A stretch of 64,000 bases of DNA from Halobellus limi (lineage in GTDB: Archaea; Halobacteriota; Halobacteria; Halobacteriales; Haloferacaceae): NCBI RefSeq assembly GCF_004799685.1, contig NZ_CP031311.1:2845355-2909354 (forward strand), written 5' to 3'. This document shows positions 20,066 to 23,600 of the stretch, in pieces. How positions within the stretch are numbered: the first letter of the stretch is position 1; each line of letters opens with the position of its first letter. The position numbers were made by a program, and so were the translations under genes. The notes under the pieces are model-generated. The model saw only the letters and a list, made by a program, of their open reading frames with translations. It had not been told where the DNA came from and did no database searches.

Positions 20066-21244
20066 GTGAGCGCGAACCGGACCGAAGTGAGAGAACTGAC
20101 GCGCCGGCTCGTCTCGATCCCGAGCCACGAGGACGAGACGGCCGCCGGTGACGCGATCGAGTCGTGGCTGCGCGCGGAGACCGACGCCGACGTGACGCGC
20201 GACCGACACGGCAACGTCGTCGCACGCCGCGGCGAGGGGGCGTCGCTGGCGCTCGTCGGCCACCACGACGTCGTCGAACCCGACGGCTCCCAGGTCGTCG
20301 GGCCCGCCGGAGACGGCCCCGCAGCCGACGACGGCGTCGGGGACGATATCGCCGACGGAAACGAGGCCAACGAGGGCGAGACCTCCACGAACGACGTCGA
20401 GTACGTCGTCGAGGAACGCGACGGGCGGCTGTACGGCCGCGGCACGGCCGACATGAAGGGGTCGCTGGCGGCCGCGATGCTCGCCTTCCGCGACGCCGAC
20501 CCCGCGGGCGAACTCGTCTTCGCGTCGTTCGTCGGTGAGGAGCAGGGCGGCGTGGGCGCCCGCGCCGCCATCGACGACGGCTTCGCGCCGGAGTACGCCG
20601 TCGTCGGCGAGGGGTCGACGAACTACGCGGGCGACGACCAGACGGACGTCGTCGTCGCCCACCGCGGGCGGCGGGGATCCACGCTCACGGCGCGCGGGAC
20701 CGCGGCGCACGCGAGCGAACCCGAAGCGGGCGAGAACGCGGTGTACCGCGCCTGCGACGCGGTCGACGTCGTGCGCGGTCTCGACGCCCCCGACGCGACG
20801 GTGCTCGGCGAGCGGGTGGCGGGGAGCCTCGTCGTCACCGAGATCGACGGCGGATCGGCGTGGAACGTCGTCCCCGAGCGCTGTACCGTGACGGTCGACG
20901 AGCGCACTGTGCCCGGCGAGCGCGTGCGCCTCGATGCGGTCGAATCGATCGACGGCGTCGAGTGGACGGTCGACCAGGACCTCCCGCCGATGGCCTGCGA
21001 CGACGGGCGGTTCGCCGACGCCGCGCTCGCCGCGGCGGACGAGGCGCAGTCGGCGACGCCCGAGCGGGTGACGAAACCCCACGCGACCGACGCCGGGTGG
21101 CTCGCGCAGGCCGGCACGACGTGTGTCGTCTGCGGCGCAGCGGAACCCGGGGAGGCCCACACGGCGGGCGAGTCCGTGAGCGTCGACGTGCTGGCGCGGT
21201 GCTACCGGATCTACCGGGAGGTCGCGACGACGTTTCAGCCGTGA
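20066..21244 (+). CDS. M20 family metallopeptidase (ArgE/DapE-like)
   Basis: A 392-aa zinc aminoacylase/deacylase-type peptidase, starting with GTG. The zinc site motifs are LVGHHDVVEPDG (H-x-D), the GRGTADMKGSLAAAM loop with the bridging Asp, FVGEEQGG (catalytic and metal Glu), and a late HATDAGWLAQAG His. A dimerisation lid lies in the middle (VAHRGRRGSTLTARGTAAHAS). An acidic low-complexity insert follows the first metal motif. The substrate may be an N-acyl amino acid or small peptide. It is on the plus strand, facing the borosin-like locus across one gene. Confidence 0.82.
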   Translation: MSANRTEVRELTRRLVSIPSHEDETAAGDAIESWLRAETDADVTRDRHGNVVARRGEGASLALVGHHDVVEPDGSQVVGPAGDGPAADDGVGDDIADGNEANEGETSTNDVEYVVEERDGRLYGRGTADMKGSLAAAMLAFRDADPAGELVFASFVGEEQGGVGARAAIDDGFAPEYAVVGEGSTNYAGDDQTDVVVAHRGRRGSTLTARGTAAHASEPEAGENAVYRACDAVDVVRGLDAPDATVLGERVAGSLVVTEIDGGSAWNVVPERCTVTVDERTVPGERVRLDAVESIDGVEWTVDQDLPPMACDDGRFADAALAAADEAQSATPERVTKPHATDAGWLAQAGTTCVVCGAAEPGEAHTAGESVSVDVLARCYRIYREVATTFQP

Positions 21245-21427: not shown

Positions 21428-22213
21428 GTGAGCGACGGTGAGATCTCGAAGGCCGTCGACGAACTCGTCTCCGAGAGCCGCCGGGTGTTCAGTTACCAGC
21501 AGGACGCCCTCGAGGAGACGCGGACGGTCATCGACCACCAGATCGACATCGCGGAGGACGCCGACAACGAGTCGCTCCGCATCATGCGACTCAACTTCGT
21601 CGTCATCGGCGCGTTCGTTCCGATCTTCGTCTCGACGCCGGAGTTGCTGGCGCCGGCGCTGCCGTGGGCCGTCGTCGCCCTGCTGTTCTCGACGATGTCC
21701 GTGTTCGCCTCCGCGTACATCTACCGCGGGCTGACGCTGTACGGCGGCTTCGGGGACTCGCCCGATCTGACGTTCGACTCGCTGGTCGAGGAGTACGGGA
21801 CCGCCGAAGACGGCGGCCCGGACATCTCACAGGCGGAGTTCCAGAGTCGGTTGCTCGAGGACCACCAGGCCGGGATCCTCCACAACAACGTCGAGATCAA
21901 ACACCGAAGCGAGATCCACCAGCAGACGACGCTGCTCCTGTTGTTCGCCATCGTGCTGCTGGTTCTCGGCATCCTCCAGAGCATCACGAGCGTCCCGACG
22001 GTCTACCGGTACCTCATCTACCTCGGCTCCGTCCCGCCGATCGTCTTCGGGTTACACCGCTCCGTTCGGGCGGCCAGTTTCATCTGCCGGCTCGAACGGC
22101 GCGGTGAGGACGAGGAGCGCCTCGACTTCGACTACTCGTTCGCACGCGAGTACCCGTACATCTCGATGATGTGTTCGTGTCTGCTGTGCGTGTACGATCC
22201 GATGGACGACTGA
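21428..22213 (+). CDS. Four-TM membrane protein of unknown function
   Basis: A 261-aa protein starting with GTG. It has an N-terminal amphipathic or coiled region (residues 1-50), a hairpin of two TM helices (about 54-71 and 78-99), a soluble helical stretch with a histidine cluster (150-166), a second TM hairpin (about 168-186 and 191-210) and a Cys-containing tail (MMCSCLLCVYDP). I do not recognise the family; the layout loosely recalls SLATT-type membrane modules, but this is not established. It is convergent with the borosin-like methyltransferase, with 11 bp between stops, so it is not in the same operon. Confidence 0.6.
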   Translation: MSDGEISKAVDELVSESRRVFSYQQDALEETRTVIDHQIDIAEDADNESLRIMRLNFVVIGAFVPIFVSTPELLAPALPWAVVALLFSTMSVFASAYIYRGLTLYGGFGDSPDLTFDSLVEEYGTAEDGGPDISQAEFQSRLLEDHQAGILHNNVEIKHRSEIHQQTTLLLLFAIVLLVLGILQSITSVPTVYRYLIYLGSVPPIVFGLHRSVRAASFICRLERRGEDEERLDFDYSFAREYPYISMMCSCLLCVYDPMDD

Positions 22214-22224
22214 TACCGATCGAC

Positions 22225-23061
22225 TCACTCGTCGGAGTCGGCCGGGAACTCGTCGTCGGCCGTGATCTCGTCGAGATGCGCCCGTGAATAGAGGTCGTCG
22301 CGGTACTCCTCGTTCGGCGCCGCTTCCGAGCGGACGGGCGGGACGTAGAGCGTGTGGCTGGGGTGGACCTCCGCGGCCATCGATTCGAACGCCGACAGCT
22401 CGAACGTCTGGACGTCTCCCGACTCGAAGGGAAGCGTCGCGGCCCGGACCAGCGACACCTCGTGTGTCGGCGGGTAAAACCGCTCCAGGTAGCGTCGGAG
22501 TCGCGTGAACCGCTCGGGGGCGTTCGGCCTCGCGGTGTAGAGTCGGGACCCGACCGTTCCGACCTGGAAGAGAAACGCCGGAACCGACGGGGTCAGCGGC
22601 AGTTCCCGGAGCAGCAGGTCGTTCACCTCGAACATCTGCAGACCGGTCTCGAAGGGGTTCAGACCCAAGTCGACGTACATCGCGTCGAGCGACGAGATCC
22701 CCGGGCGGACGTCGACGTCGACCCCGGCCGCCTCCCCGCGGCGGACGATGTCGTCCGTCGGCGTGACGCCCACGGTCGGATGCCCGTAGGTGGCGAGCGC
22801 CACCGGTGAATCGGCGTCCGCAGCGGCGGAGACCACCCGGTCGACGATGCTGTCGTACGTCTCCGCCCGCGGTCGGCCCTCCTCGTACTCCGACCCGAGG
22901 CGTACGACGGCCCCGAAGCGGTCGGAGAGGGCCTCGGCCACGATGTCGTGGGGATGCAAGAGGAAGATCCGGTCCGAGCGATCGAGCGCGACGTCGACCT
23001 CGTCGGTCAGCTGGTTGCAGCCGACCATACCGAGTCCGACGACGTAGAGGCGAGTGGTGAT
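22225..23061 (-). CDS. Borosin-type peptide backbone alpha-N-methyltransferase (tetrapyrrole-methylase fold)
   Basis: A 278-aa SAM-dependent methyltransferase if started at the ATC at 23061 (267 aa from the ATG at 23028). From the ATC, RLYVVGLGMVGCNQLT is the Gly-rich SAM loop. The catalytic stretch YEEGRPRAETY (Y59, G62, R65, Y69) reproduces the OphMA catalytic pattern Y-x2-G-x2-R-x3-Y. TYGHPTVGV, VRPGISSLDAMYVDLGLNP and LFQVGTVG align in order with OphMA. The family methylates backbone amides of a RiPP precursor. The peptide gene directly upstream at 23131-23310 is the likely substrate. The fungal clasp and core region is absent, as in bacterial split borosins. The ATG at 23028 would cut off the first SAM-binding strand. 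The substrate pairing is inferred from sequence and position. Confidence 0.8.
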   Translation of the reverse strand: MTTRLYVVGLGMVGCNQLTDEVDVALDRSDRIFLLHPHDIVAEALSDRFGAVVRLGSEYEEGRPRAETYDSIVDRVVSAAADADSPVALATYGHPTVGVTPTDDIVRRGEAAGVDVDVRPGISSLDAMYVDLGLNPFETGLQMFEVNDLLLRELPLTPSVPAFLFQVGTVGSRLYTARPNAPERFTRLRRYLERFYPPTHEVSLVRAATLPFESGDVQTFELSAFESMAAEVHPSHTLYVPPVRSEAAPNEEYRDDLYSRAHLDEITADDEFPADSDE

Positions 23062-23072
23062 AGTGTTCCTCC
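23059..23072 (-). promoter_or_regulatory. Shine-Dalgarno GGAGG with ATC as probable start codon
   Basis: On the minus strand, GGAGG (23072-23068) is followed by AACACT and then ATC (23061-23059). The six-base spacing is ideal. The frame has no ATG, GTG or TTG between the preceding TGA (23133-23131) and the internal ATG at 23028. A strong SD placed exactly before the conserved N-terminus decides the start, even though ATC is a rare initiator. Confidence 0.6.
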
Positions 23073-23130
23073 GGGAGCGAGAAAAATCGCGGGTCGTGAA
23101 AAACGCCGGCGATCGAATTCCCGATCGCGG

Positions 23131-23310
23131 TCAGTTGTTAATGAGCCACGATCGCGGGTCGAAGTCGCCGTCCGGTTCCCCCGGAAGGCCGTCGACGTCG
23201 GAGAGTCCGTACTCCCGAAGGACGGCGTCGGGGTCGGCCTGGAACCGTTCACGCACTTCCGCGTCGGAAACGAGCGCTTTCTTGAGCGCGTGGATGTCGT
23301 CGCCTGTCAT
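23131..23310 (-). CDS. Borosin-like RiPP precursor peptide
   Basis: A 59-aa peptide, MTGDDIHALKKALVSDAEVR followed by ERFQADPDAVLREYGLSDVD and a tail ending DPRSWLINN. The first about 40 residues match the recognition helix bundle of split-borosin precursors: a short helix, then (D)-x3-L/V-x3-F/Y-x2-(N/D)P-(E/D)-A-V-(M/L)-x3-GL-(T/S)-(D/E). The Gly/Pro/Asp-rich linker then leads to a short hydrophobic end, SWLINN, the likely methylated core. It lies 69 bp before the methyltransferase start, on the same strand and in the same frame, with only its own TGA between them. Without the neighbour it would look like any small ORF; function is inferred. Confidence 0.72.
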   Translation of the reverse strand: MTGDDIHALKKALVSDAEVRERFQADPDAVLREYGLSDVDGLPGEPDGDFDPRSWLINN

Positions 23311-23417
23311 ACACGGTAGACGTTACTAGTCACCGACAAAAGTGTTTGGTCCCTGATTATGCGAGGGAAATCGGTCGGCAATAGGACTAAATAGTGGTAC
23401 GCCATACCATAGCGTGT

Positions 23418-23600
23418 ATGGCCTCAGCACCGAGCTCCGACGATGCGCTGTTCGACCAGTTCCTCGACGACCGCGGTCACGACATCGAGACAGTGGACTG
23501 GGAGACCTCGTATAACAAGAAGCAGTGTCCGGAGTGTGGTGCACTCCACGACGACTCGGCGTCCGTCTGCGGGGTCTGCGGGTGGGACCCCCGGACCTGA
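23418..23600 (+). CDS. Small zinc-ribbon protein (HVO_0416-like)
   Basis: A 60-aa protein with a disordered N-terminus and a four-cysteine zinc ribbon, CPECG...CGVCGW, near the end (NKKQCPECGALHDDSASVCG). It resembles the small haloarchaeal HVO_0416-type zinc-finger family; its function is unknown. The ATG at 23418 lies about 27 bp after CTAAATA (near 23387-23393), so the transcript is probably leaderless. It is divergent from the borosin-like precursor, sharing a 107-bp gap. Confidence 0.75.
   Translation: MASAPSSDDALFDQFLDDRGHDIETVDWETSYNKKQCPECGALHDDSASVCGVCGWDPRT

What the first reader, a model, noticed from the sequence alone, without database searches (positions are those of the whole stretch)
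22225..23310. Archaeal split-borosin-type RiPP locus: precursor peptide plus backbone N-methyltransferase
Seen: a 59-aa ORF (23131-23310) with the leader pattern of split-borosin precursors (D-x3-V-x3-F-x2-DPDAVL-x3-GLSD) and a hydrophobic tail SWLINN, followed on the same strand by a TP-methylase-fold enzyme. The enzyme's YEEGRPRAETY reproduces the catalytic Y-x2-G-x2-R-x3-Y of OphMA (YDNGKSRLNTY there), and TYGHPTVGV, RPGISSLDAMYVDLGLNP and LFQVGTVG align in order. Known: borosins methylate backbone amides; characterised systems I know of are fungal or bacterial. Inference: this haloarchaeon makes an N-methylated peptide.
Basis: partly seen in the sequence, partly recalled or inferred. Interest (0 to 1): 0.95.

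Follow-up and report, generated by a model that had tools for sequence, protein, structure and literature searches.

The report
Haloarchaeal split-borosin peptide-methylating gene pair
A salt-loving archaeon (genus Halobellus) carries a two-gene cassette, a small precursor peptide and an enzyme of the family that methylates peptide backbones, extending the borosin class of peptide natural products from fungi and bacteria into haloarchaea, where it is rare but widely scattered.

Summary
The enzyme (22225-23061, - strand) is a true borosin alpha-N-methyltransferase homologue: a haloarchaeal profile hits dbOphMA at 2e-44 and SonM at 2.6e-40, against 9e-4 for the best cobalamin-type protein. SonM's tested residues Y58, R67, Y71 and Y93 are kept. 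The 59-aa ORF (23131-23310, -) is a borosin-binding-domain (BBD) precursor. A model built without it finds it as the only good hit among 876 window ORFs, and the family profile's best PDB hits are all SonA. The pair occurs in 9 of 391 haloarchaeal genomes, each with a BBD ORF beside the enzyme. Both genes are under purifying selection; the core PDGDFDPRSWLINN is unchanged in a sister species. Added here: no ATG/GTG/TTG start, but a conserved GGAGG-6nt-ATC suggesting an AUC start; a membrane protein (21428-22213, +) found in Halobellus only in the three genomes with the enzyme, beside it each time; relatives with prolyl oligopeptidase, ABC or MFS genes; six tandem cores in H. clavatus. Methylation and product function remain unproven.

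The parts
23131..23310 (-). Split-borosin precursor gene, 59 aa (MTGDDIHALKKALVSDAEVRERFQADPDAVLREYGLSDVDGLPGEPDGDFDPRSWLINN)
   Evidence: leave-out profile hit 2.6e-6; SonA is the best PDB match of the family profile; dN 0.046 / dS 0.28 against the sister species
23176..23310 (-). Leader: reduced borosin-binding domain, three predicted helices (residues 3-15, 17-25, 27-33) plus linker to residue 45
   Evidence: alignment A3; AlphaFold2 secondary structure
23134..23175 (-). Proposed core region PDGDFDPRSWLINN (residues 46-59)
   Evidence: identical amino acids in the sister species with one synonymous change; core boundary and methylation sites are inference
22225..23061 (-). Borosin alpha-N-methyltransferase, 278 aa if started at ATC 23061
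   Evidence: SonM 9e-22 and OphMA 6e-17; profile 2e-44 to dbOphMA; Foldseek best hit SonM 7ltc, TM 0.85 by target; key residues
23059..23061 (-). Probable non-canonical AUC start codon of the methyltransferase
   Evidence: no in-frame ATG/GTG/TTG before the GLGM motif in the window or in G217; homology to relatives' N-termini
23068..23072 (-). Shine-Dalgarno-like GGAGG, 6 nt before the ATC
   Evidence: kept (within CCCGGAGG) in G217 in an otherwise diverged 64-67 nt spacer, 69% identity
23338..23349 (-). Promoter-like box CCAAACACTTTT, 27 nt before the precursor ATG
   Evidence: conserved in G217; reading it as a BRE/TATA of a leaderless transcript is inference
21428..22213 (+). Convergent membrane protein, 261 aa, proposed partner (immunity, export or target)
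   Evidence: present in exactly the 3 of 17 Halobellus genomes that carry the methyltransferase and beside it or one gene away in each; only 3 strong hits among 391 haloarchaeal genomes

Best explanation
This is a haloarchaeal split-borosin (RiPP) cassette. The small gene makes a peptide whose helical leader (a reduced borosin-binding domain) docks on the TP-methylase-fold enzyme. By homology to SonM/OphMA, the enzyme dimer threads the C-terminal core (around residues 50-59, FDPRSWLINN) through its active site and methylates backbone amide nitrogens with SAM, probably at one or a few of W55, L56, I57, N58. The enzyme is translated as the second cistron from a Shine-Dalgarno-led AUC start, which would keep its level low relative to the precursor. 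The leader is then removed by a peptidase not encoded beside the pair. The convergent membrane protein most likely exports the product, protects against it or is acted on by it. Shown: homology, catalytic residues, leader-enzyme linkage, selection, co-occurrence. Inferred: methylation, its sites, leader removal, start-codon use, the membrane partner's role.
For: Enzyme: single sequence against PDB gives only borosin enzymes with significant E-values; profile 2e-44 dbOphMA, 2.6e-40 SonM, 1.5e-38 OphMA; Foldseek top 50 all SonM/OphMA/MroMA/dbOphMA. Residues equivalent to SonM Y58, R67, Y71, Y93, E146, Q167 are kept in all 9 haloarchaeal enzymes; PMC8429565 shows by mutation that Y58, R67 and Y71 matter for turnover and Y93 for cofactor binding. 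Precursor. Linkage: 9/9 haloarchaeal loci; 11/16 bacterial loci found by the enzyme alone have a BBD ORF upstream on the same strand at E<=1e-4. Selection: precursor dN/dS about 0.16, enzyme about 0.14 (NG86). Haloarchaeal enzymes form one clade, 98/97. Membrane partner. Relatives with hydrophobic cores and with POP/ABC/MFS genes.
Against: No chemistry was tested. The window's leader lacks the region of helices 4-5 of the canonical BBD, and its core is acidic, unlike the beta-branched cores of most relatives. The F99/W166 'bottom lock' of SonM is G/F here (lock defined in PMC8429565). No dedicated RiPP protease or transporter was recognised beside the pair in this genome (an M20 peptidase lies at 20066-21244 but is of a common housekeeping family), and the nearest S9 relative elsewhere is weak (27%). 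The AUC start has no direct proof.
Confidence: 0.85

Rival explanations
1. The enzyme is an ordinary TP methylase (cobalamin, diphthamide or similar) and the small ORF is an unrelated or chance reading frame.
For: Both share the PF00590 fold, and weak cobJ/cobI matches exist (1.7e-3, 0.018).
Against: Borosin enzymes beat the best cobalamin-type protein by about 40 orders of magnitude in E-value; the catalytic Y/R/Y/Y set is intact; BBD ORFs sit beside the enzyme across archaea and bacteria.
Confidence: 0.02
2. A genuine borosin enzyme that lost activity: the missing start codon and reduced leader mark a decaying cassette.
For: No ATG/GTG/TTG start; short BBD; altered bottom-lock pair.
Against: Both genes are under purifying selection with an invariant core; the same start region with SD is kept in a second species; no internal stops in either enzyme copy.
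Confidence: 0.06
3. The enzyme is made by reading through the precursor's TGA, giving a leader-core-methyltransferase fusion like the N-terminal-core fused borosins.
For: The precursor TGA is in frame with the enzyme and the spacer is open in both species although it differs in length by 3 nt. A naturally fused BBD-proline-rich-enzyme protein exists in another archaeon (L028).
Against: The spacer is only 69% identical at DNA level and its translation is not conserved, while GGAGG is kept. Same frame and open frame are likely enough by chance.
Confidence: 0.08
4. The enzyme methylates the neighbouring membrane protein or another protein instead of, or besides, the small peptide.
For: The membrane protein is a neighbour conserved in all three Halobellus loci.
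Against: The BBD leader family is tied to the enzyme far outside Halobellus, where that membrane protein is absent.
Confidence: 0.04

Closest known systems
SonM-SonA, type IV split borosin of Shewanella oneidensis (PMC8429565)
   Same: Separate adjacent precursor and enzyme genes; homologous BBD leader (1.3e-6) and enzyme; same catalytic residues
   Different: Archaeal; leader lacks the region of helices 4-5; core acidic and ending in SWLINN; bottom-lock F99/W166 replaced by G/F; probable AUC start; convergent membrane partner
OphMA / dbOphMA / MroMA, fungal fused borosins
   Same: Same enzyme fold and active site; POP (S9) present in relatives' clusters, as OphP is for omphalotin (PMC12235650, abstract)
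   Different: Core is on a separate peptide here; the window itself has no POP beside it
Other split-borosin types V-X and fused type 0 (as summarised in PMC11395268)
   Same: BBD plus core on one peptide with separate enzyme is its 'class 3'; bacterial relatives L029-L045 have long or proline-rich regions after the same BBD
   Different: Haloarchaeal enzymes form their own clade; the type number was not assigned here

Membership tests
Borosin (alpha-N-methylated RiPP) | TP-methylase-fold alpha-N-methyltransferase homologous to OphMA/SonM | tested here: met
Borosin (alpha-N-methylated RiPP) | Active-site residues SonM Y58, R67, Y71, Y93 | tested here: met
   roles in PMC8429565
Borosin (alpha-N-methylated RiPP) | Precursor backbone amides are N-methylated | not testable with these tools
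   needs mass spectrometry
Split borosin (type IV-like) | Discrete precursor gene next to the methyltransferase gene | tested here: met
   stop-codon readthrough fusion is not excluded
Split borosin (type IV-like) | Precursor leader is a borosin-binding domain (five-helix bundle in SonA) | tested here: inconclusive
   Homologous by profile but only helices 1-3 are aligned/predicted
Split borosin (type IV-like) | SonM bottom-lock stacking pair F99/W166 (mechanistic detail, not family-defining) | tested here: not met
   G and F in the window and G217, G and Y in H. clavatus; F and W in the other six haloarchaeal enzymes
Cobalamin/diphthamide TP methylase | Best profile matches to those families | tested here: not met

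The most novel reading that the evidence does not exclude
Halobellus borosins are a lineage-specific peptide conflict or signalling system. An AUC-started enzyme methylates a short acidic peptide that acts on, or is exported or blocked by, the dedicated convergent membrane protein, which would make it a backbone-methylated archaeal antimicrobial or signal with its own immunity or receptor gene.
Probability: 0.25. Interest if true: 0.78.

Novelty: new member of a known kind. Interest (0 to 1): 0.58.

Why it matters
PMC8429565 describes borosins as the only RiPPs known to carry backbone alpha-N-methylation on translated peptides. The two borosin papers I could read in detail do not mention archaea. 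A haloarchaeal clade brings salt-tolerant enzymes, compact leaders, a six-core precursor (H. clavatus) and POP-containing clusters that resemble the fungal omphalotin arrangement. It also offers a possible natural case of AUC initiation in an archaeon, and a candidate membrane partner that could reveal what split borosins do, since PMC8429565 states that none was tied to a final natural product at that time.

Tried and rejected
A degenerate-pattern scan of genome contigs with the single enzyme found no relative; the alignment-based scan worked. Adding separate precursor rows to the folding alignment failed because MAFFT placed them inside the enzyme, so only enzyme rows were used and the model says little about docking. 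PADLOC and NCBIfam gave nothing for the membrane protein, and Pfam only a sub-threshold DUF4231 match. No near copy of the locus is in the plasmid collection. A paper search for AUC starts gave nothing archaeal. The codon print is one base out of frame and was not used; the frame is that. The translation was in the wrong frame; one search is right. Surveys Imani 2022 and Cho 2022 are not held, so prior listing of archaeal borosins could not be checked. Considered and rejected: cobalamin/diphthamide methylase, pseudogene, readthrough fusion as the main product.

Full report
Observation. The 59-aa ORF lies at 23131-23310 on the minus strand and the TP-methylase gene follows it on that strand. 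The quoted motifs are all there. The enzyme begins further upstream than a standard ORF caller puts it: the ATG at 23028 is the Met of the conserved GxGMVG loop, and the homologous N-terminus reaches back to about 23061.

What the enzyme is. A single-sequence search of PDB chains returns SonM (9e-22) and fungal OphMA-type enzymes (6e-17 and similar) and nothing else significant. A profile of nine haloarchaeal homologues reaches dbOphMA at 2e-44 and SonM at 2.6e-40, while the one cobalamin-related protein is at 9e-4. An AlphaFold2 model (mean pLDDT 80) of the precursor-plus-enzyme readthrough frame has SonM as best Foldseek match, with TM 0.85 by target length and the top 50 all borosin enzymes. 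The residues that align with SonM Y58, R67, Y71, Y93, E146 and Q167 are unchanged. In PMC8429565, Y58F, R67K and Y71F cut catalytic efficiency about 14-, 97- and 98-fold, and Y93 is tied to cofactor binding. The stacking pair F99/W166 that closes SonM's bottom lock is G/F in the window and its sister species and G/Y in H. clavatus, but F/W in the other six haloarchaeal enzymes.

What the small ORF is. A profile built from haloarchaeal precursors without the window's ORF and its sister copy scores the window's ORF at 2.6e-6; the next of 876 ORFs is at 6.4. The precursor profile's best seven PDB matches are all SonA chains (1.3e-6 to 3.2e-6). Between the window and G217 the precursor has dN 0.046 and dS 0.28, the enzyme dN 0.071 and dS 0.49 (NG86), and the last 14 residues PDGDFDPRSWLINN are identical with one synonymous change. 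The leader is short: alignment and model show only three helices before a disordered stretch at residues 42-50, so a complete five-helix BBD was not demonstrated.

Distribution. The enzyme is in 9 of 391 genomes of the class and 3 of 17 of the genus. One of the three is Halobellus clavatus, by matching contig length and locus, so the window comes from a Halobellus. All nine loci have a BBD ORF at the enzyme, eight upstream on the same strand and one divergent. In 16 bacterial loci fetched with the enzyme alone, 11 have a BBD ORF (E<=1e-4) just upstream on the same strand. The haloarchaeal enzymes form one clade with 98/97 support. A Haloarcula plasmid carries ABC transporter, BBD peptide, enzyme and prolyl oligopeptidase in a row, the same set as in G169 and G083. 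G174 has two precursors with an ABC transporter, and G326 an MFS exporter. The Haloarcula record's annotation says only 'SAM-dependent methyltransferase' and 'hypothetical protein'.

Start codon. Neither the window nor G217 has an in-frame ATG, GTG or TTG between the precursor's TGA and the GLGM motif. Both keep CCCGGAGG, then 6 nt, then ATC ACC ACT CGC CTC. The spacer is otherwise diverged (69% identity). I read this as a Shine-Dalgarno-led AUC start. Readthrough of the TGA, which is in frame in both species, is the alternative.

Membrane partner. The convergent gene 21428-22213 encodes a membrane protein with the conserved motifs LYGGFGDSP and HNNVEIK. In the genus it occurs in exactly the three genomes with the enzyme. 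It is directly adjacent in the window and G217; in H. clavatus, where it is only 35% identical, one class I methyltransferase gene lies between. Under independence the co-occurrence has a probability of 1/680, but two of the three are close sisters, so that figure overstates the evidence. Among 391 class genomes only those three give strong matches; the next, G380, has no borosin enzyme or BBD at the locus.

Mechanism and limits. By homology, the leader docks on the enzyme and the core is methylated on backbone nitrogens using SAM. No tool here can show methylation, its sites, leader removal or bioactivity. The window has no recognised RiPP protease or exporter beside the pair; the M20 peptidase at 20066-21244 lies beyond the membrane-protein gene and I regard it as housekeeping (inference).

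Novelty. The features tested place it in the borosin family, with methylation untested. The papers held that treat borosins in depth speak of fungi and bacteria. The two main surveys were not held, and from memory such surveys may already list archaeal entries, so I call it a new member of a known kind with lineage-specific features.

Noticed in passing
L017:7540-7893 (Halobellus clavatus, NZ_FNPB01000001.1): Precursor with a BBD leader and six tandem 30-bp repeats, each encoding the core DDNIGYTGDS (last copy without its S), divergent from its borosin enzyme; peptide repeats are identical while the DNA carries synonymous differences.
   Followed up: partly
L028:997-2277 (G755, another archaeon of the same phylum): Single 426-aa reading frame with an N-terminal BBD-like region (weak, E=0.02), a proline-rich stretch and a borosin methyltransferase: a fused archaeal architecture.
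   Followed up: partly
L015:4939-10147, L016:4648-10565, L070:4441-8879: Haloarchaeal cassettes with ABC transporter, precursor, methyltransferase and S9 prolyl oligopeptidase, one of them on a Haloarcula plasmid; reminiscent of omphalotin OphP.
   Followed up: partly
L013:7343-7908: Two different BBD precursors in tandem before one methyltransferase, with different beta-branched cores.
   Followed up: no
L069:5049-6474 (G380) and L017:4658-6445: Homologues of the window's membrane protein lie next to a class I SAM methyltransferase-like gene in two different genera, one of them without any borosin enzyme at the locus.
   Followed up: no
window 23394-23600 (+): Small zinc-ribbon protein gene upstream of the precursor, divergently oriented; it was not seen at this place in G217, where other genes lie upstream.
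   Followed up: no
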